Source: Microvirga brassicacearum | Lineage (GTDB): Bacteria; Pseudomonadota; Alphaproteobacteria; Rhizobiales; Beijerinckiaceae | DNA: 64,000 bases | Assembly (NCBI RefSeq): GCF_008757455.1 | Contig: NZ_VCMV01000003.1 | Location: 1-64,000 of the forward strand | Direction of reading: 5' to 3' | Shown: piece by piece, positions 29,096 to 38,171 of the stretch | Layout: every line of letters starts with the position of its first letter | Position numbering within the stretch: the stretch's first letter is position 1 | Notes under the pieces: generated by a model | Told to the model about the DNA's origin: nothing | The model's database searches: none | What the model saw: only the letters and a program-made list of their open reading frames with translations | Made by a program: the position numbers and the translations under genes

Positions 29096-29338
29096 GCAGA
29101 TGCTTTGCGTTCCAGACACACGGTAGCATCGTCGATCGCCGTTTGTGAATGCGCTCAAGCAGGTTCGGAGTCCAAGGAGGATACAGCAGGCGCGCCGGGT
29201 TGGTTCGCCGGGAACTTCAGCTTGCACACCTTGGCCGAGGCGTGCGCCGGCTCATCCGACCTCGATCGGGATGCGGCCGGCAAAATTCTCCCAGGCCTGA
29301 TTTCGGTCGGCCGCGGACCCTGGCCTCGCGTTTCTTGA

Positions 29339-29928
29339 AGAGAATGCTTCCGCCGGGAACGACCGGCTTTCCGCATCGAGATTGGCAACGATGGTTGGTC
29401 CTGGCTCATCGGCGCGCCGATCAGCACCGCAGCCGATCTGGCTCGCACGGGATTGAAGGGCGGTGCCTTGGACGCGGCGTTGAAGCATCATGCGTCACGG
29501 CATGTGAGACTGGCGTCACTCGTCGAGCAATTGCGGATGCGGATAACCGGGTCACGCTGGCGCCGAGGGAGCGTGACATGTACGGCGTTCCCCTGCCGCA
29601 ACTCTCCTACCGCCTCGACGATTATATTCATGCCGGACTTGCGGCAACGCGCGCCGCTCACGCGGAGATCTTTGCCAGGCTGGGGACCACGCAGGTGCAG
29701 CATCAACCGGCCCCCGAGGGCGCGGGACACATCATCGGCACGGCGCGAATGGGTGCCGATCCCCGCACGTCGGTCGTTGATCGCGACCTGCGCAGCCACG
29801 ACCATCAAAACCTTTTCCTCCTCGGCTCCGCCGTGTTTCCGACGGCGGCGACGGCGAACCCGACTCTCACGATCGCGGCGCTCAGCCTGCGCGCCGCCGG
29901 TCAGATCAAAGCGACGCTGGGACAATAA
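29339..29928 (+). pseudogene. GMC-family oxidoreductase, truncated and frameshifted
   Basis: Frame 2 (29339 to about 29532) reads FRIEIGNDGWSWLIGAP and ASRHVRLASLVEQL. Frame 1 from about 29533 reads ADADNRVTLAPRERDMYGVP, GAGHIIGTARMGADP, then LFLLGSAVFPTAATANPTLT and AGQIKATL. This is the C-terminal half of a glucose-methanol-choline (FAD) dehydrogenase, with the catalytic-domain H and the FAD-proximal N-P-T-L-T end. The N-terminal FAD-binding Rossmann half is absent. One base appears lost at about 29533 (TTGCG where TTGGCG is expected). Traces further upstream (to about 29200) are too degraded to assign. A remnant of a periplasmic sugar/alcohol dehydrogenase is likely. Confidence 0.75.
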
Positions 29929-30222
29929 GCGGGTCGCCGCTCGAAAGGCCCGGCGCACGATTGCGCGGCAGAACGCTGATCCGGAGGCCGCTCTGGACGC
30001 CGGTCACGACGAATAGCCTTATCGGGCGATGCGGGATTAGTCGGATTGAGTGAGACTGCGACGAGAGTGGCGCCTTTCCTACCACCGCCGGGCTAGCGCG
30101 CCGGATTCCTTCGCAGGTCCTCGGCCGGGAACCCCACCAGACTTGGCGTCTACCCGCGCGTCGTCAAACACGGGATGATGGATCAGCGCCGGCGCCGGGC
30201 GCAGGTACCATGGAGACGCGCG

Positions 30223-30942
30223 ATGGAACCCGATGAGGCGGACGAGAGCGACGGGACACTGGATCTGCAGGACCTCGACCAGGAGGACGACGAGATCGAA
30301 GACACCGACGAGGGTTCGCCCTCCGAAGAGGCCGATGCGGCTAATCTCGATATCAATCTGGATCAGGATTCCGGCACGGACGATGACGCCGACATTGGCG
30401 TAGCGATCATCGGTTCGCAACCCACCACCGTGGAGATCGACACGGAGATCGACCAACAAGGTGAAGTCGATCAGGATGCGGACGTCGCCAGCGATGGTGG
30501 CGGCGCGGGTAGCTGGGCAATCGATGTTGCGGGCGTGCAACGGCCCGAGGTCGATCAGCGGATTGAGGTCGATGTCGAAGTCAGCGAAGGTGATGATGGC
30601 ACCGTTACCGTCGAGATTGACGTCGATATCGAGGACGATGTCGAGATCGAGAGCGACGCGGATATCGATGTGAGCGACGACGACGAAACCAGCATCCATG
30701 GTGAGATTGATCAGGATACGGAAAGCGACAGCAATGTGGATGCCGACGTGGAGATCCGTGACGACATCGACGCCGATGTCCTCGTCGACATCGATTCCCT
30801 CATCAAAGCGGCCGCGCAGGCTGCCGTAGACGTGGACGAGGATGATGAAGACACCGAGATCGGCGTCGATTTCGACGAGGACGCCGCGGTGGATGGAGAT
30901 GTCGACATCATCGTGGATGTGGGCGACACCGCTGATCTCTGA
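30223..30942 (+). CDS. Asp/Glu-rich repeat protein A (putative type I-exported)
   Basis: A protein of about 239 residues starting MEPDEADESDGTLDLQDLDQ. It is dominated by Asp, Glu, Val and Ile in alternating patterns, for example TVEIDTEIDQQGEVDQDADV, IDVDIEDDVEIESDADIDVS, GEIDQDTESDSNVDADVEIR and DGDVDIIVDVGDTADL at the end. There are no Cys residues and almost no aromatic ones. An alternating acidic/hydrophobic pattern suggests beta strands with one acidic face, suited to Ca2+ binding outside the cell. No family is recognised. ATG 30223 follows GGAG and avoids an Arg-rich leader that begins at 30175. A strong terminator follows. It shares its composition with the genes at 31226 and 37113 and stands beside a type I exporter. 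Confidence 0.6.
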   Translation: MEPDEADESDGTLDLQDLDQEDDEIEDTDEGSPSEEADAANLDINLDQDSGTDDDADIGVAIIGSQPTTVEIDTEIDQQGEVDQDADVASDGGGAGSWAIDVAGVQRPEVDQRIEVDVEVSEGDDGTVTVEIDVDIEDDVEIESDADIDVSDDDETSIHGEIDQDTESDSNVDADVEIRDDIDADVLVDIDSLIKAAAQAAVDVDEDDEDTEIGVDFDEDAAVDGDVDIIVDVGDTADL

Positions 30943-30968: not shown

Positions 30969-30993
30969 GAGCCGCTCGTTGCGGCTCTTTTTT
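30969..30993 (+). terminator. Rho-independent terminator after Asp-rich gene A
   Basis: GAGCCGC (30969-30975), loop TCGTT, GCGGCTC (30981-30987) and six T residues (30988-30993) make a textbook intrinsic terminator 27 bases after the stop codon. It separates gene A from the next transcription unit. Confidence 0.9.
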
Positions 30994-31225
30994 AGGTTGT
31001 CATCAAGCGGCCTCTTTGACCGGCGTCACCCAAGCGGGTGAGTCGTTTCTGCGCTCACCACCTTTTCGGCCGAATTCAAATTGGCAACTATTCTCTAAAA
31101 ACCGAAGCTGGGAAAATCGTTCATCGACCGGGCGTTGCAGTGATCCAACCGGATCGCCCGACCCGCCGATCCGCTCTGGATGATACGCTTGCCGGGGCGG
31201 CTTTCACGCACGGGGAGAGTGCATC

Positions 31226-31603
31226 ATGGCCGACTTTAAAGACAATGATTTCGACTTCGATATTGATGCCGATATCGATCAGGACCTCGATCAGGATCAA
31301 GATCAGGACGTGGATGTCGATACCGACCAGGATTCGGATGTCGATCAGGATAACTCGAATGACTCGGACGTCGACAACGACACCGATCAGGACGCGGATG
31401 CCGACGCCGATGCTGATGCCGATGATCACAGCGACGCCGACGCCGACGCGGATGCCGACAACGACAACGACACCGACGTGGATGTCGATCAGAAGAACGA
31501 CAACGACGCCGACGTCGACCAGGATCAGGACGTCGACGTGGACGTCAGCCAGGATCAGGATGCTGACCAGGACGCAACGATCGATATCGACTTCGATTTC
31601 TGA
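31226..31603 (+). CDS. Alternating-Asp protein B (poly X-Asp)
   Basis: A 125-residue protein with 57 Asp and no Glu. From residue 8 to the end it runs X-Asp-X-Asp almost without a break, with X drawn from Val, Ala, Gln, Asn, Thr, Ile and Ser: FDFDIDADIDQDLDQDQDQD near the start, DADADADADD in the middle, and DATIDIDFDF at the end. No Cys, Pro or Gly. An extended strand would put every Asp on one face. The tail -DIDFDF resembles type I secretion C-termini. ATG 31226 follows GGGGAGAG. It lies 128 bases before the secretion ABC transporter. I do not recognise the family; a role as a secreted calcium- or metal-binding, or mineral-contacting, polypeptide is inference. Confidence 0.65.
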   Translation: MADFKDNDFDFDIDADIDQDLDQDQDQDVDVDTDQDSDVDQDNSNDSDVDNDTDQDADADADADADDHSDADADADADNDNDTDVDVDQKNDNDADVDQDQDVDVDVSQDQDADQDATIDIDFDF

Positions 31604-31731: not shown

Positions 31732-33567
31732 ATGGTTGTCACCTGGATGAAGACGCGATCACGAACCGAGATCGAGCGCGCCTTCGAGTTGTGCAAGACG
31801 TCCCTGCTTGTGGTGTTTGCGCTCAGCTTCTTCGTCAATCTTCTGGCGCTCACCGTGCCGCTTTATCTGCTGCAGGTTTACGATCATGTCCTGTCGAGCC
31901 GCAGTCTCGACACGCTCATGATGCTAACCTTCATCGTCGTCGTCGCCCTGGCGGCGCATGCATGCCTCGAAGCTCTCCGCCGCGAGATGCTCGCGCGGGT
32001 CGGCACCTGGTTGGACGACCGCTTGCGGGCATCCGTTCTGATCGCCGCCGTACAGTCAGCCTTGCGCAATGAACAAGCCGCCGCCGCACAAGCCTGGCGC
32101 GATCTCAGCGGCCTCCGCACGTTCTTCGGCGGCACCGCATGCACGGCTCTGTTCGATCTTCCCTGGACGCCGATTTTCATCTTGGCACTGATCATTATTC
32201 ATCCTTTGCTTGGCGGGATCGGCCTTGTGGCGTCGATCGTTCTGTTCGGGATGGCGATGCTCAACGAGGTGGTGACGCGCAAACCCATTGCCCGTTCGAG
32301 CGCGGCTGCGGTCGAGAGCCAGCACCGGTTTGAAACTCTCCTGCGCAACGTCGAGGCCATCAGCGCGATGGGAATGCTGCCCGGCGTGGCCCGCCTCCTG
32401 CATGACGATCAGTCGAACGCGAAAGAGGCCCAACTCTCCGCCTCCGGGCGCGCCGCCGCCATCCAGGCCCTCGCCCGTTTTGTCCGGCTCCTGACCCAGG
32501 TCATCGTCATGGCCTGCGCCGCATGGCTCGTGATCCTGGACACGGTCAGTCCCGCGGCCATTTTCGCAAGTTCAATCCTGCTGGGACGGTCATTGGGGCC
32601 CGTGGAAGGATCGATCAGCACATGGCGCGCGGTCACCGGCGTGCGCCTCGGCTATCACCGCCTGCACAAGATCATGGGCGGCCTGCCTCAATCCCGCAAA
32701 ACCATGTATCTGCCGCGCCCTAACGGAGCCGTCTCCGTCGAGCAGGTGACGTTCATGATGCCGGGCGCCGATATGCCCGCCGTCCGCCGGCTGACCTTCT
32801 CGGTCGAGCCGGGAGAAATCCTTGGGGTGGTCGGGCCGTCCGGTGCGGGCAAATCGACGCTCGGACGCCTGATCGCCGGCACCATCTCTCCCTCTGTCGG
32901 GCATGTGCGCCTCGACGGCGCCGACATGCGGATTTGGCTCGCCTCCGGTGGCCACCGCTATCTGGGTTATCTTCCGCAGGAGATCGAACTCTTCGGCGGC
33001 ACCGTTCGGGAGAACATCTCCCGCCTGCAGGACGCCCCGTCCGAACATGTGATCGCTGCCGCCGCCATGGTGGGGCTGCACAAGATGATCATGCGTCTTC
33101 CTCTGGGCTATGAGACCGATATCGGCGAGGGCGGCATGCGGCTCTCCGGCGGGCAGCGGCAGCGTCTCGGCCTCGCGCGGGCGCTCTTCGGCTTTCCGCG
33201 CCTCATCGTGCTCGACGAGCCCAATGCGAGCCTCGATGCTGAAGGTGAGGAGGCTTTGCGCCATGCCATTCAGGCGATGCGAGAGCGCGGGTCGACCATC
33301 ATCATCATCGCCCAGCGCTTCGGCGTTCTGAATATGTCGGACAAGCTCCTGGTGCTGGATAACGGCGTGATGAATGCCTTCGGGACGCGCCGCGATGTTG
33401 CCGAGAAGATCAGGAGTGGACGCACGGTCATTCCGGCGCGGAGCCAGCAGGTCGTGCTGACTCAACGGAGTATGAGGCCGCCAGCCGATGACGGCTTCGC
33501 GGGCTCGCCGCCGGGTAGAACGAAGAGGGCCAATCCCGGCGCGGCAACCGAGAGGGCTGCGTCATGA
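31732..33567 (+). CDS. Type I secretion ABC transporter (PrtD/RTX-exporter class, no C39 peptidase)
   Basis: A 611-residue fused membrane-ATPase exporter. The membrane region spans residues about 20-320 (start FELCKTSLLVVFALSFFVNLLALTVPLYLLQVYDHVL, typical of the PrtD/LapB-like group), with no N-terminal peptidase domain. The ATPase shows Walker A GPSGAGKST (368-376), Q-loop YLPQEIELFGGTVRENI, signature LSGGQRQRLGLARALF, Walker B LIVLDEPNASLD and an H-loop-like IIIAQRFG, in which the usual His is Gln. It would push unfolded proteins with C-terminal signals across both membranes together with HlyD and a TolC. Its stop overlaps the start of the HlyD gene (ATGA). Confidence 0.93.
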   Translation: MVVTWMKTRSRTEIERAFELCKTSLLVVFALSFFVNLLALTVPLYLLQVYDHVLSSRSLDTLMMLTFIVVVALAAHACLEALRREMLARVGTWLDDRLRASVLIAAVQSALRNEQAAAAQAWRDLSGLRTFFGGTACTALFDLPWTPIFILALIIIHPLLGGIGLVASIVLFGMAMLNEVVTRKPIARSSAAAVESQHRFETLLRNVEAISAMGMLPGVARLLHDDQSNAKEAQLSASGRAAAIQALARFVRLLTQVIVMACAAWLVILDTVSPAAIFASSILLGRSLGPVEGSISTWRAVTGVRLGYHRLHKIMGGLPQSRKTMYLPRPNGAVSVEQVTFMMPGADMPAVRRLTFSVEPGEILGVVGPSGAGKSTLGRLIAGTISPSVGHVRLDGADMRIWLASGGHRYLGYLPQEIELFGGTVRENISRLQDAPSEHVIAAAAMVGLHKMIMRLPLGYETDIGEGGMRLSGGQRQRLGLARALFGFPRLIVLDEPNASLDAEGEEALRHAIQAMRERGSTIIIIAQRFGVLNMSDKLLVLDNGVMNAFGTRRDVAEKIRSGRTVIPARSQQVVLTQRSMRPPADDGFAGSPPGRTKRANPGAATERAAS

Positions 33568-34919
33568 AAAGTTCGAGCGGCAGCATTGCCCACGATCTCG
33601 CGGCCATTCTGCAATCCCCGTCCGGCACGCCGCTCCAGCGCCTGCGCTTTCTTGCGGCGAGCGCCTTCGCAATTGTCGGTGTCTTCGTCGTCGGTTTTGG
33701 CGTCTGGGCGACGCAGGCTCCCCTCGAGAGCGCTGCTGTGGCGGGAGGGGCGATCGAGGCCGAGTCGAGCCGCAAGACGATTCAGCATCTGGAAGGCGGG
33801 ATCATCGGGCGCATTCTCGTCGCCGACGGGGACGAAGTGGCCGCGGGGCAGGCGCTCATCCACCTCGACGACACGGGGGCTCATGCGACCGTCCAAGTGC
33901 TGCAGGGCCAACTCTGGAATGCGCAAGCCCAGGAAGCGCGCCTGCTGGCGGAGCGTGACGCCCGGAATGAAGTCGAATTTCCGTTCGTGTTCATGCAGCG
34001 GAAGCCGAACGATCCCGATCTCGCGAGCATCATGAACGGCCAAATCAAGATCTTCGAGACGCGCAGAAAGTTGCAGGCCTCCCGGATCGAGGTCATCGAG
34101 CAGCGCAAGGCCCAGACCGAGCGGGAAATCGTCGGATTGCGTTTCCAGGAACAAGCGGCCGCCAAGCGCGCGTCGATTATCAAGGAGGAGATCGCGGTGG
34201 TGGCGCCCCTCGTCACCAAGGGCCTACAGACGCGTCCACGTCTCCTTCAATTGGAACGCGAGCAGGCTGAGATAGACGGGCGGCTCGGCGGGACACAGGC
34301 CCAAATTTCGCGGGCAGAGCAATCGATCGGCGAATCCCAGGCGATGATCCTCAAACTGGAGAGCGATTATTACTCCGAGATCGCCCAGGGCCTTCGCGAT
34401 ACGCAGGGCCAAATCTTCCAACTCCTCGAACGCCTTCAAGCAGCGCAGGACGTGCTTGCCCGAACCAAAATTCGCGCTCCCGAGGCTGGTATCATCACAG
34501 ATCTGCGCATCCACACCCCTGGGGGAGTTGTGGCCGCCGGTGAGCCATTGTTGGACCTCGTTCCTCGGCAGGATCGTCTCATCGTAAGAGCGCAGGTCAA
34601 GCCCGAGGACATTGATCTTGTGCGGCCGGGCCTCGAGGCCCGTATCCGCCTCCTGTCCTACAAGCACCGGCGCGTGCCCCCTGTTGACGGCGTCCTCACT
34701 TATGTCTCAGCCGACCGCCTCGTTGATAAGCAGACCGAGCGCGCCTATTACACCGCTCAGATCCGGATCGACCCAACGTCGCTGCGCGGGCTGCCGGAGG
34801 TAAAAATCATCCCCGGCATGCCGGTCGAGGTGTTAATCAAGACCGGGCAGTTCACGGTCGCGCATTATGTGCTGCGCCCCTTCCTCGACAGCTTCAACCG
34901 TGCCTTCCGGGAGGATTGA
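33564..34919 (+). CDS. HlyD-family type I secretion membrane fusion protein
   Basis: A 451-residue periplasmic adaptor. A short cytoplasmic N-terminus is followed by one membrane helix (about 34-54, AFAIVGVFVVGFGVWATQAPLESAAVA). Residues near 60-105 form the first barrel-sandwich half with RKTIQHLEGGIIGRILVADGDEV. A long coiled coil follows (about 150-290) with the RAQxxIVxxR-type regions, then the second half TKIRAPEAGIITDLRIHTPGGVVAAGEPLLDLVP, and a barrel domain with VKPEDIDLVRPGLEARI. The pattern is PrtE/HlyD type I, not an RND adaptor. It is coupled to the ABC gene by a 4-base overlap. A TolC-like channel is not encoded in the window. Confidence 0.93.
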   Translation: MKSSSGSIAHDLAAILQSPSGTPLQRLRFLAASAFAIVGVFVVGFGVWATQAPLESAAVAGGAIEAESSRKTIQHLEGGIIGRILVADGDEVAAGQALIHLDDTGAHATVQVLQGQLWNAQAQEARLLAERDARNEVEFPFVFMQRKPNDPDLASIMNGQIKIFETRRKLQASRIEVIEQRKAQTEREIVGLRFQEQAAAKRASIIKEEIAVVAPLVTKGLQTRPRLLQLEREQAEIDGRLGGTQAQISRAEQSIGESQAMILKLESDYYSEIAQGLRDTQGQIFQLLERLQAAQDVLARTKIRAPEAGIITDLRIHTPGGVVAAGEPLLDLVPRQDRLIVRAQVKPEDIDLVRPGLEARIRLLSYKHRRVPPVDGVLTYVSADRLVDKQTERAYYTAQIRIDPTSLRGLPEVKIIPGMPVEVLIKTGQFTVAHYVLRPFLDSFNRAFRED

Positions 34920-34926
34920 TCTGGTG

Positions 34927-35844
34927 ATGAAGCGGAATCGTCACGGATGGGGGCTGGTCCTCGCGATCGCCCTGATATTCGTCTCGCCGGCTCTGCGGAG
35001 CGAGCCTTTCGCGGTGGGCAAGTCGGAACGGGACATCCAAGCCGGCGAGGCGATCTGGCAGGTCTATGCCTACAAACCGTCCTGTTATGGCAATGGCCTT
35101 CTCATCGTGGTGTTCCACGGCTCGGATCGTAATCCTCGGCTCGCCCGCGACAACGCTGTTCCGTTGGCGGAGGCCGGCTGTGCTCTGGTGGTGGCGCCCC
35201 TCTTCGACGAGGGACGGTTTCCTCGCTGGGCATACCAGTTCGGCGGCATCGGCAACGTTGTCGAAGAAAACGGCACCAGGAAGTTTCGGCTGAAACCAAA
35301 AGGCCGCCGCACCGGCCAGTTGCTCCTTGATCTGATCGAGGCGCTGCGCGAACGCGAGGGATCGCGAACGCTGCCTTACTCCCTCATCGGCCACTCGGCC
35401 GGAGCGCAGTTTCTCAGCCGGTTCGCAGCGTTCGTCAAGAACGAGGCGCAAAGGATCGTGCTCGCGAATCCGGGCAGCTACGTCGTTCCACTCTGGGAGC
35501 GAAAATATCCGTATGGTCTCGGAGGGCTCGCCATCGTCGATGAGGCGGATCGCAGACGCTATCTCGGCTCGCCCATCGTCATCCTTCTGGCGAACGGGGA
35601 TTTGCAGCGGGAAGGGTTGGACAAAAGCCCGGGCGCGGAACGGCAGGGGCCGACGCGATACGCCCGTGGCCGGGCGGTGTTCGAGGTGGCGCGGGCGAGT
35701 GCTGCGGCCGATGGTTCGGATTTCAACTGGTCTCTGGTCGAGGTTGCGGGTCTCGGACACGGTAGCGCCAAGCTCTACGCACGCTCCGAAACCGCCGCGG
35801 CATTGTTTGGAACCCTTGAGATAGGAGGCGTCCCGCTTCAATAG
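34927..35844 (+). CDS. Exported alpha/beta hydrolase
   Basis: A protein of about 305 residues starting MKRNRHGWGLVLAIALIFVS with a signal peptide ending near ALRS. The alpha/beta hydrolase core has the oxyanion strand LIVVFHGSDRNPR, the nucleophile elbow LIGHSAGAQF (Ser157), an acid candidate and a C-terminal His in EVAGLGHGSAKLY. It resembles PHB-depolymerase/feruloyl-esterase-like secreted hydrolases; substrate unknown. A ribosome site GGAGG is 10 bases upstream, and the gene starts 8 bases after hlyD, so it forms an operon with the secretion genes. Its stop overlaps the end of the convergent regulator gene by seven bases. Confidence 0.75.
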   Translation: MKRNRHGWGLVLAIALIFVSPALRSEPFAVGKSERDIQAGEAIWQVYAYKPSCYGNGLLIVVFHGSDRNPRLARDNAVPLAEAGCALVVAPLFDEGRFPRWAYQFGGIGNVVEENGTRKFRLKPKGRRTGQLLLDLIEALREREGSRTLPYSLIGHSAGAQFLSRFAAFVKNEAQRIVLANPGSYVVPLWERKYPYGLGGLAIVDEADRRRYLGSPIVILLANGDLQREGLDKSPGAERQGPTRYARGRAVFEVARASAAADGSDFNWSLVEVAGLGHGSAKLYARSETAAALFGTLEIGGVPLQ

Positions 35845-36620
35845 GTGCCGAGTTGGGAGACGGAGAGAACCACCGCCTCGGTCCGGTTCGTCGCGTGCAA
35901 TTTGCGCATGATGTGCTGGATATGAACCTTGATCGTATTCTCCGAGAGCTTGAGGTGATCGGCGATCCATTTGTTGGAGTGCCCCTTCTGGAGCAAGGCC
36001 AGAACATCGGCTTCGCGCGTCGTGAAGGTGACGCGCGCGCCGTTCGTGCGAAGCAGGGGCGGTGGGTCCTCGTCGAAACTGGAGGGTGAAATTTTTTCGC
36101 TTACCGCGATCGGCCCCGGCGCTACCGGGGACGAATGAGACGGTTGGAAGGGATCCGAATGGCCGTTCCTCGTCGCGCCGTTTGGTGAAGCAAGATCGTT
36201 TAAGCCTGGCCGTGGATAATAGGTTCCACCGGCCATGACCAACCGGAGTGCAGCCACTCCGACCCTGAGAGAAGCCGTCACGGGCACCACGCCTTGCACG
36301 CCCGCAGCGATCGCCTTGAAGACGTCGATGGCGTCATTCGCGGAGATCAGCACAACGGGTGCTTTAGGGGAGTAACGCTCAAGAGTCTTGACGGCTCTCG
36401 AGATGGCGTCCCACGTCGGAAAACCCGCGGCCTTCAGCAGCACGAGCGCAACGGTCATTCCATCGGGGCGATAGAGATCCTCGACCGACGCCACTCCGTC
36501 GACCATCGCACCAGGGAACGACCCCCGCAGGGCCTCGACGACGCATTCCTGGGAAAATGGCTCATCGTCAACGACAATGATCGCCTCACCCATTCCCTCG
36601 TCTGCACGATATGCTGGCAT
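35838..36620 (-). CDS. LuxR-type regulator with degenerate receiver domain
   Basis: A protein of about 260 residues. Residues 10-130 are a receiver fold (EAIIVVDDEPFSQECVVEAL, APVVLISANDAID, GVVPVTASLRVGVAALRLV). The strand that should carry the phospho-acceptor Asp reads TVALVLLKAAGFP (Asp replaced by Lys), and the conserved Lys of the last strand is absent (VVPVTAS instead of LLKS). A disordered linker leads to a C-terminal LuxR helix-turn-helix, VTFTTREADVLALLQKGHSNKWIADHLKLSENTIKVHIQHIMRKLHATNRTEAVV. It should act without phosphorylation. ATG 36620 has AAAGGGGGG upstream. It is transcribed toward the hydrolase and divergent from Asp-rich gene C, so it may control the secretion cluster. 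Confidence 0.8.
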   Translation of the reverse strand: MPAYRADEGMGEAIIVVDDEPFSQECVVEALRGSFPGAMVDGVASVEDLYRPDGMTVALVLLKAAGFPTWDAISRAVKTLERYSPKAPVVLISANDAIDVFKAIAAGVQGVVPVTASLRVGVAALRLVMAGGTYYPRPGLNDLASPNGATRNGHSDPFQPSHSSPVAPGPIAVSEKISPSSFDEDPPPLLRTNGARVTFTTREADVLALLQKGHSNKWIADHLKLSENTIKVHIQHIMRKLHATNRTEAVVLSVSQLGTY

Positions 36621-37112
36621 AACGACCCCCCTTTGACAGGTCAAAGAGATCGTCTCAGGCAAAGCGCCGCACCAGCTTAAGAGCAACTGCTTTGCCTTGA
36701 ACAATGAGATCAAAAATCAGGAGCTAAGTCGTACATCTTTCAGAGTAATTCGCCACCATGATATTCCAGGAGCACCGTCCGATGCGCTGACTCGACGGCA
36801 CGTCACGCTATGCTTGCCCTGAACTGAGCAAGTCTACGTTAACACAAGTTGTGCATTGCCAAACATTTCTTGCGTAATCCATGGTAGGGAATAAATGAAC
36901 TAAAAAGGGCTATTGTATATGAATACTATCTCGTTTCGTTATCACCCGTGGGTAGCCCGGAGGAATGTCCTTTCCTTCGGATAGATTGCGACGCCTGCAC
37001 GAGTGCCGTCGGCACAGTCGCGATTAACGCGAAGGCTCGCCCGAGCGGATTAACCCACCCTACCGAAAGAGGCCTCTGGAAGTGGGAGAGCGCGCGCGCA
37101 TGATGGGGTTAC
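36621..37112. promoter_or_regulatory. Long divergent intergenic region of the Asp-rich/secretion cluster
   Basis: About 490 bases between the LuxR-type gene and Asp-rich gene C, with an AT-rich middle (about 36690-36950) unusual for this genome. It contains one 13-base palindrome GTGCCG-T-CGGCAC (37003-37015) and no credible coding frame. It should hold both promoters; I cannot place -10/-35 boxes with confidence. Confidence 0.45.
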
Positions 37113-38171
37113 GTGCGATTGAGCGCCGAGGTCGAGATGCTTCCTGCCGACAAGGACACCCGCGATCTGCTGCCGCTCATGGCGGCTGCTCCGACCACAA
37201 TCGCCGCGGCTGAGAGTGAGGTCTGTCGAGGTCCCGTCCCGGAAGATGGTGCTGCGTTTGACGCCCCTGGGCTTCACCGAATTTCCGATGCTGCGGGCGA
37301 CAGCGAGGAAGAGCACAGCGGCACACCCACGCCGTTCGCGGCCATCCCGTCATCTCACCCTGTCTTCGATGCTCCAGAGGCGATTCAGGGTGAGGCTACG
37401 GGTCTTCACCTGATGCCCGCGCCAGCAATCCAGGCGATCTCCGTGTCGCAGCCATCCGGGAAAGAATCCACCGAAGGGACAGGCGATCACGATCCACGTA
37501 CCGTTGGACACAGTTCCCCCATCACTGCCAGGGGCGATGGCACCGCGGAATGGCCCACGGCCGGCAGCGCGGCGGGCGAGACCGATGATGCTCACAGCAT
37601 CAACCTGACGCAGATTGCAGAAGTCGACCAGGACGCGAGCATCGTCGTCCGCGGCTATGCGGGGGAGGTCGTCGCGCGCCTGCATATCGACCAAGATATC
37701 ATGATGGATCAGGACGTCGACTTCGGCTTCATCATCGATGGAGACGGACATTTCGTCATTCGGCTCGATCAGGACATGCGCATCGAGCAGGAGATCGATA
37801 TCGACCTCGAAATCTTCGGTGCCGACGGCGTGCTCTATGTGGATCTTTATGTGAGCGACTCGATCGAAATCGAACAGGACACAAAGCTGGACATGTGGAT
37901 TACTGACGGTCCCCCTGGCGGGACGGTTCAGGTTCACCAGGACATTGAACTCGAACAGGATGTCGACATCGACATCCAGATCGAGGACGATCTGGAAGAG
38001 CGCTACGCCATCAAGGTGGATATCGACGTGATCCAGGAGGTCGATGCCGATCAGGATGCCGCCATCGATGTGGCCTACGCCAACGGCGAGATCGATATGG
38101 ACGTGGATGCGGTGCAGATGGCGGCCGTCGATCAGGAAACGGTCGCACAAATCGATTTTGCGCTGGTCTAG
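37113..38171 (+). CDS. Asp-rich repeat protein C (QD-repeat)
   Basis: A protein of about 345-352 residues. Residues 1-165 look disordered (Pro, Ser, Glu, Gly). The second half consists of about five units of 27-31 residues, each a pair of alternating strands ending in a turn such as DGDG, ADG, DGPPGG or ANG. Examples are ARLHIDQDIMMDQDVDFGF, IRLDQDMRIEQEIDIDLEIF, YVSDSIEIEQDTKLDMWI and VQVHQDIELEQDVDIDIQI. It ends ETVAQIDFALV, an Asp-hydrophobic tail like type I signals. No known domain is recognised. GTG 37113 or ATG 37137 are possible starts. It is divergent from the degenerate LuxR regulator and shares its composition with genes A and B. Confidence 0.6.
   Translation: MRLSAEVEMLPADKDTRDLLPLMAAAPTTIAAAESEVCRGPVPEDGAAFDAPGLHRISDAAGDSEEEHSGTPTPFAAIPSSHPVFDAPEAIQGEATGLHLMPAPAIQAISVSQPSGKESTEGTGDHDPRTVGHSSPITARGDGTAEWPTAGSAAGETDDAHSINLTQIAEVDQDASIVVRGYAGEVVARLHIDQDIMMDQDVDFGFIIDGDGHFVIRLDQDMRIEQEIDIDLEIFGADGVLYVDLYVSDSIEIEQDTKLDMWITDGPPGGTVQVHQDIELEQDVDIDIQIEDDLEERYAIKVDIDVIQEVDADQDAAIDVAYANGEIDMDVDAVQMAAVDQETVAQIDFALV

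What the first reader, a model, noticed from the sequence alone, without database searches (positions are those of the whole stretch)
31226..31603. Protein with Asp at almost every second residue (57 of 125, no Glu)
Strict two-residue periodicity with Asp only, never Glu, argues for selection rather than random acidic drift. An extended beta strand would show one fully carboxylated face, like the Asp-rich proteins that contact calcium minerals. At DNA level this is a 6-base periodic array of GA(C/T) codons with mixed use of GAC and GAT, so it is not a simple DNA repeat expansion.
Basis: seen in the sequence. Interest (0 to 1): 0.75.

Follow-up and report, generated by a model that had tools for sequence, protein, structure and literature searches.

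The report
Alternating-aspartate protein beside an export pump
A Microvirga bacterium carries a small protein in which almost every second building block is aspartate, a spacing kept by evolution, encoded next to what is probably its own export pump; its likely job is to bind calcium or help attachment outside the cell.

Summary
In detail: ORF 31226-31603 is a real gene (125 aa, 57 Asp, 0 Glu, 55 of 57 Asp on one parity). It is under selection. In 11 sequences (window plus 10 homologues from five genera) the distance between conserved anchors changes only by even numbers of residues, and Asp/Glu changes are 4-6 times rarer than in the neighbouring exporter genes. In Microvirga the same 14 of 48 genomes have a D125-like match and this adaptor clade. 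D125 is a short form of a modular family: conserved Asp/Gln/hydrophobic ends around a variable spacer. Most likely it is a T1SS-exported, calcium-responsive matrix or adhesion polyanion that works like Paracoccus BapA (891 Asp-Ala repeats, beside T1SS genes, needed for biofilm); homology to BapA was not tested. Export, calcium binding and function are inferred. No Pfam or PHROGs family matched. New variant of a known kind.

The parts
31226..31603 (+). D125: alternating-Asp protein, 125 aa
   Evidence: 11 sequences aligned
31226..31351 (+). D125 conserved N-module (aa 1-42), Asp alternating with F/I/L/V/Q
   Evidence: matches the N-module of seven long Gly-rich forms (hhalign E 3.2e-12; all 60 dipeptide-column shuffles scored lower)
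31352..31489 (+). D125 variable spacer (aa 43-88), Asp alternating mainly with A/N/V/S/T
   Evidence: the part that differs in length and make-up between homologues; the borders are my choice
31490..31600 (+). D125 conserved C-module (aa 89-125); candidate secretion signal (inferred)
31732..33567 (+). type I secretion permease/ATPase, PrtD type
   Evidence: TIGR01842 620.1 bits, cut-off 510.15
33564..34919 (+). HlyD-type adaptor of the same exporter, overlapping the ATPase gene by 4 bases
   Evidence: TIGR01843 367 bits, cut-off 208.65
30175..30942 (+). D255: Asp/Glu-rich protein, 255 aa, seen beside Asp-type but not Gly-type substrates
   Evidence: tblastn E<=1e-10 in 11 of 11 Asp-type loci (window included) and 0 of 11 Gly-type loci; in L040 the frame holds a stop near its beginning
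37113..38171 (+). P352: N-terminal linker plus a C-half predicted as seven long beta strands; conserved Gln columns; DF-small-hydrophobic-hydrophobic C-terminus
   Evidence: model confidence is modest (mean pLDDT 54.6, pTM 0.40)
35838..36713 (-). LuxR-type regulator gene; a LuxR-type match lies in each related locus
   Evidence: PF00196; (33-38% identity in the non-Microvirga Asp-type loci)
34867..35844 (+). ORF with an apparent signal peptide and a GHSAGA motif (both by eye), also in two other Asp-type Microvirga loci
   Evidence: no Pfam or NCBIfam match at E<=0.001
31078..31098 (+). conserved non-coding element AAATTGGCAACTATTC..., about 145 nt 5' of the D125 start codon
   Evidence: aligned upstream regions of 18 loci, window included; one exact copy in the window
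31026..31041 (.). inverted repeat TCACCCAAGCGGGTGA; similar palindromes by eye in several homologous upstream regions; possible operator
30969..30992 (+). intrinsic-terminator-like hairpin with T run between D255 and D125

Best explanation
D125 is the cargo of the type I secretion system encoded directly downstream. In the calcium-poor cytoplasm the chain (computed net charge about -55) should stay unfolded, which suits export. Outside, calcium should bridge the regularly spaced carboxylates and turn the alternating Asp/hydrophobic/Gln ends into beta-strand or cross-linked material, while the central stretch acts as a polyanionic spacer. The product would work in the extracellular matrix or in surface attachment, possibly with the neighbour P352, as BapA does in Paracoccus. 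Shown: a real, selected gene; conserved ends; co-inheritance with one exporter clade. Inferred: export, calcium response, matrix role, partnership with P352.
For: Exporter genes pass curated cut-offs. In 13 of 13 other Microvirga loci picked for a D125 match, the Asp- or Asp/Gly-rich protein lies directly 5' of this ATPase; of the best 80 named loci picked by the adaptor alone, the 16 closest (9 Asp-type, 7 Gly-type) have such a protein there. The same 14 of 48 Microvirga genomes have a D125 match at E<=1e-5 and the close adaptor (E<=1e-249; next best 5e-181). Carriers of the Asp type form one clade in the adaptor tree (99/96). Of 397 genomes of the order only the window's own has a D125-family match at E<=1e-12 and the close adaptor; the D125 profile finds 8 of 8 known carriers. 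Even-step length changes and Asp/Glu constraint. T1SS RTX cargo is unfolded at <100 nM Ca inside and folds at mM Ca outside (PMC3034196, passages). BapA, an Asp-Ala repeat protein encoded immediately upstream of T1SS genes, is needed for biofilm, which calcium stimulates (PMC5588039, passages). A TolC-type T1SS outer-membrane protein is encoded on another contig (349.3 bits, cut-off 225.15).
Against: No Gly in D125, so no RTX nonapeptide. No experiment shows export or calcium binding. The D125 model has no secondary structure. The C-terminus is not shown to be a secretion signal. In three of nine named Asp-type loci about 560-710 bp separate the gene from the ATPase match; I did not examine what lies between. 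hhalign finds no meaningful similarity of P352 and D125 (18 columns, probability 2%), so co-assembly has no sequence support. The two Mesorhizobium homologues carry 25 and 26 Lys+Arg, which weakens a pure polyanion reading for them.
Confidence: 0.6

Rival explanations
1. Mineral-templating protein: the exported alternating-Asp chain nucleates or shapes calcium carbonate or phosphate on or near the cell, a bacterial counterpart of aspein.
For: Asp register under selection. [quoted passage not shown] The BapA authors speculate that BapA might nucleate a calcium mineral (PMC5588039, passage).
Against: Nothing in the locus points to minerals; the Gly-rich forms in the same position have long stretches without alternating Asp, so templating by such a register is unlikely to be the shared role of the family.
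Confidence: 0.15
2. Exported metal scavenger or buffer (calcium, manganese or rare earths) rather than a structural protein.
For: Dense carboxylates beside an exporter.
Against: No metal-uptake family among the ten neighbouring ORFs scanned (the rest of the window was not scanned); the conserved hydrophobic and Gln positions of both ends are not needed for a simple chelator.
Confidence: 0.12
3. Cytoplasmic acidic protein (for example a nucleic-acid mimic or an escort of the real cargo), with P352 or another protein being the true cargo.
For: P352 ends in DF-small-hydrophobic-hydrophobic in 17 of 17 sequences, which resembles T1SS C-terminal signals as I recall them (a paper search for this, found nothing); D125 and D255 do not end so.
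Against: D125-like genes, in Asp and Gly-rich forms, and not P352, lie directly 5' of the ATPase.
Confidence: 0.1
4. Low-complexity non-coding or drifting tract.
For: Diverged tandem repeats at DNA level.
Against: Eleven sequences in five genera with a kept start and a purine-rich ribosome site, even-step length changes and Asp/Glu constraint.
Confidence: 0.02

Closest known systems
BapA of Paracoccus denitrificans (PMC5588039 and PMC13235738, passages seen)
   Same: Alternating-Asp chain (Asp-Ala) between divergent N and C termini; gene immediately upstream of T1SS genes; predicted T1SS substrate.
   Different: BapA has 2,211 aa and 891 Asp-Ala repeats with hydrophobic ends similar to adhesins; D125 has 125 aa, mixed neighbours (A, Q, V, N) and short ends. 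BapA's operon includes an outer-membrane gene; in the window's genome the only T1SS TolC-type match is on another contig. Homology was not tested.
RTX proteins (PMC3034196, passages seen)
   Same: Asp-rich, T1SS-linked; unfolded before export is assumed for D125.
   Different: D125 has no Gly, hence no nonapeptide repeats.
Ser-Asp repeats of SdrC, SdrD, ClfA, ClfB
   Same: Two-residue Asp periodicity gives profile matches (best E 2e-10, 38.8 bits).
   Different: Far below the cut-offs (2500 bits for SdrD); D125 has no room for adhesin domains.
Aspein of bivalve shells (as described in PMC5588039, passages)
   Same: Extreme Asp content with Asp-Ala repeats.
   Different: Animal shell matrix; resemblance of composition only, no sequence comparison made.
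[quoted passage not shown]
   Same: Asp alternating with a hydrophobic residue, as at the D125 C-terminus.
   Different: Synthetic and short; D125's neighbours are mostly A, Q, V and N.
Gly/Asn-rich proteins upstream of related T1SS in Rhizobium and Bradyrhizobium (visible part)
   Same: Same place before a related ATPase (about 43% identity) and adaptor, a LuxR-type gene nearby.
   Different: GNGGDG-like motifs, no alternating Asp; one is annotated 'PE-PGRS family protein'. Homology to D125 not tested.

Membership tests
PrtD-type type I secretion locus | ATPase and HlyD adaptor above curated cut-offs | tested here: met
   TIGR01842 620.1 of 510.15 bits; TIGR01843 367 of 208.65 bits
PrtD-type type I secretion locus | outer-membrane component available | tested here: met
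   TIGR01844 349.3 of 225.15 bits on another contig of the genome, not in the locus
T1SS cargo | C-terminal secretion signal and export shown | not testable with these tools
   only position next to the exporter and a conserved C-terminus
RTX family | Gly/Asp nonapeptide repeats | tested here: not met
   D125 has no Gly
BapA (Paracoccus) | alternating-Asp chain encoded directly before T1SS genes | tested here: met
BapA (Paracoccus) | homologous N and C termini | not tested
   I did not obtain the BapA sequence
BapA (Paracoccus) | required for calcium-stimulated biofilm | not testable with these tools
   needs a mutant
MSCRAMM Sdr/Clf | score above family cut-off | tested here: not met
   38.8 bits against 2500 for SdrD; the other three also far below
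D125/Gly-rich substrate family of Microvirga | shared N-module | tested here: met
   hhalign probability 97.6%, E 3.2e-12; rerun score 74.7-75.7, best of 60 dipeptide-column shuffles 43.1, though shuffles still reach probability 85%

The most novel reading that the evidence does not exclude
The locus makes a two-protein extracellular material: D125, a natural (X-Asp)n polymer whose alternating register is selected, and P352, a sheet of seven very long beta strands with conserved Gln columns, which assemble in calcium outside the cell into a fibrous or mineral-templating matrix, exported by one dedicated type I pump.
Probability: 0.15. Interest if true: 0.8.

Novelty: new variant of a known kind. 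Interest (0 to 1): 0.55.

Why it matters
It offers a very small, genetically tractable test of whether a strict Asp-every-second-residue register is selected for calcium, surface or mineral binding, with an exporter, a regulator and a predicted beta-rich neighbour in one locus. It also hints at where to look for cargo of rhizobial T1SS that have none: in R. leguminosarum the systems ToaDE and TobDE had no identified cargo (PMC2275737, passages). Whether those two are the relatives seen here was not tested.

Tried and rejected
Family libraries: Pfam and PHROGs gave no match for D125, D255 or P352; NCBIfam gave only matches far below cut-off, to Sdr/Clf proteins, for D125 and D255 and none for P352. 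PDB sequence search: for D125 only three entries of one protein (negative elongation factor E, E about 0.005), which I take as low complexity; for P352 none at E<=1. Fold search with the P352 model: no Foldseek match at E<=0.001 (best 1.9); VIA-align none at Z 2 among 147 chains. P352-D125 homology: hhalign probability 2%; tblastn of D125 in its own genome touches P352 at E 0.017 and D255 at E 0.36, which I do not count. Plasmids: 487 records with an adaptor match, all under 60% identity. Rfam and ARAGORN: none in the window. A sigma-54 reading of TTGGCAACT was dropped by eye. Papers: searches listed nothing that describes this protein family; I saw listings and starts of abstracts, opened passages of six papers and the abstract of one, and the library holds open-licence papers only.

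Limits: the sequences compared are related, so pairwise counts and length parities are not independent events; overall lengths (96-201 aa) do not all differ by even numbers, only the distance between the NDFD and IDxDF anchors does. The ATPase and adaptor controls used 10 species (not G038). The 2e-12 ignores relatedness of the genomes. In one search at most 4 candidates per genome were scored. One weak D255 hit in a Gly-type locus (L032, E 8e-4) falls in the P352 gene and was not counted. The output was cut, so remarks on Rhizobium and Bradyrhizobium rest on its visible part. The script stopped with an error after L056; I used its printed rows only. The tree used 36 of 86 adaptor rows: 22 Asp- or Gly-type carriers and 14 outgroups of my choice; eight named Microvirga rows had been left out before as the same contigs (by length) as unnamed ones already in. 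In one search an Asp-content filter missed four of the seven named Gly-type proteins, which one search then found by their start motif.

Full report
WHAT IS THERE. The ORF 31226-31603 is as described: 125 residues, 57 Asp, no Glu. 55 of 57 Asp lie on one parity. Lag-2 Asp pairs are 49 against a shuffle mean of 25.3 (sd 2.8, maximum 35 of 20,000), and adjacent Asp pairs are 1 against 25.5. Asp codons are 29 GAC and 28 GAT.

WHERE IT IS. D125 ends 128 bases 5' of a PrtD-type T1SS ATPase (31732-33567), which overlaps a HlyD adaptor (33564-34919); both pass NCBIfam cut-offs. Around them lie D255 (30175-30942, Asp/Glu-rich), an ORF at 34867-35844 without family, a LuxR-type gene (35838-36713, minus strand) and P352 (37113-38171). 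A terminator-like hairpin separates D255 from D125.

IT IS SELECTED. Eleven sequences (window, two other Microvirga, two Mesorhizobium, two Aminobacter, three Phyllobacterium, one Ensifer) span 96 to 201 residues. The distance between the conserved NDFD and IDxDF anchors is 81, 111, 111, 113, 123, 127, 147, 147, 149, 179 and 179: always odd, so between the anchors length changes by multiples of two residues and the Asp register is the same at both ends. Where both members of a pair have a GAN codon, Asp/Glu differences number 118 against 1025 synonymous Asp differences (0.12). In the adaptor the figures are 174 and 344 (0.51), in the ATPase 233 and 340 (0.69). Fourfold sites of those two genes give 2.9 and 3.2 transversions per transition, so without constraint Asp/Glu differences would be the commoner kind. 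Asp is therefore held against Glu. Glu is not forbidden: the other ten sequences hold 0 to 6. Related sequences are not independent, so no probability is attached.

IT GOES WITH THE EXPORTER. In all 13 other Microvirga loci fetched around a D125 match, an Asp-rich or Asp/Gly-rich protein lies directly 5' of the ATPase. Coming from the other side, of the 80 best named loci found with the adaptor alone, the 16 closest have such a protein there: nine of Asp type and seven of Gly type. Across 48 Microvirga genomes, 14 have a D125 match at E<=1e-5, and the same 14 have the close adaptor (E<=1e-249, next best 5e-181). Two 14-sets of 48 agree by chance with probability 2e-12 if genomes were independent, which they are not. 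In the adaptor tree the carriers of the Asp type form one clade (99/96) that joins three Microvirga with Phyllobacteriaceae and Ensifer. In 397 genomes drawn from the order only the window's own has a D125-family match at E<=1e-12, and only it has the close adaptor; four others have more distant ones. The D125 profile finds 8 of 8 known carriers.

ANATOMY. Compared with seven long forms (388-487 aa), D125 keeps an N-module (about aa 1-42) and a C-module (about aa 89-125) in which Asp alternates with F, I, L, V and Q. The middle differs: Asp with A/N/T/S in short forms, GGDGTGG-like in long ones. The N-module similarity exceeds composition: hhalign score 74.7-75.7 against at most 43.1 in 60 shuffles that keep dipeptide columns. 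AlphaFold gives D125 no secondary structure (mean pLDDT 53). For P352 it gives seven strands of 19-26 residues within residues 162-351, with block confidence 53-80, after a linker under 50; over the whole protein mean pLDDT is 54.6 and pTM 0.40, so this is a hint and not a structure. Eleven columns there are Gln in 14 or more of 17 sequences, and all 17 end DF-small-hydrophobic-hydrophobic. No PDB fold was matched. A P352 homologue is present in all 22 Asp- or Gly-type loci, window included. D255 accompanies only the Asp type at E<=1e-10: 11 of 11 against 0 of 11; in L040 its frame has a stop near the beginning. Upstream regions of 18 loci share an element like AATTGGCAACTATTC, in the window 145 nt before the start, and a purine-rich ribosome site.

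HOW IT LIKELY WORKS. RTX cargo of T1SS stays unfolded in calcium-poor cytoplasm and folds in calcium outside (PMC3034196, passages). A chain with a computed net charge near -55 would fit this route. The closest described case is BapA of Paracoccus denitrificans: 891 Asp-Ala repeats, gene immediately upstream of the T1SS genes, deletion deficient in biofilm, adhesion stimulated by 10 mM calcium (PMC5588039, passages); later work treats BapA as the surface adhesin (PMC13235738, passages). I infer that D125 is exported, binds calcium and works in matrix or attachment. [quoted passage not shown] None of these steps is shown for D125.

KNOWN OR NEW. It is not RTX (no Gly), not a Sdr protein (far under cut-off), and not shown to be a BapA homologue. 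It probably works like BapA in small. No family library searched matched it above cut-off, and the paper searches listed no description of it. I file it as a new variant of a known kind, the T1SS-linked alternating-Asp protein.

Noticed in passing
window 37113-38171 and the rows of alignment A5: P352, a conserved protein whose C-half is predicted (modest confidence) as seven long beta strands with conserved Gln columns and no PDB match; possibly a fibre-forming or exported protein.
   Followed up: partly
window 30175-30942: D255, an Asp/Glu-rich protein found with Asp-type substrates (11 of 11 loci) and not with the Gly-rich type (0 of 11).
   Followed up: partly
window 31026-31098 and 17 homologous upstream regions: Conserved non-coding element and palindromes before the substrate gene, perhaps a promoter and an operator.
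   Followed up: partly
L052-L056, L085, L094, L116:3351-3920: Gly/Asn-rich proteins (GNGGDG-like) before related T1SS in Rhizobium and Bradyrhizobium, one annotated PE-PGRS; candidate unrecognised T1SS cargo.
   Followed up: partly
L065:6050-6996: Microvirga roseola: three tandem similar ORFs (SDHDATA..ADSG..) directly 5' of a related T1SS.
   Followed up: no
window 29149-29928: ORF matching only the C-terminal domain of GMC oxidoreductases, perhaps a gene remnant.
   Followed up: no
G448:C154:2425-2787: The genome behind L037 (Mesorhizobium alhagi) holds a second, weaker D125-profile match (E 2.9e-7) in a 549-aa open frame.
   Followed up: no
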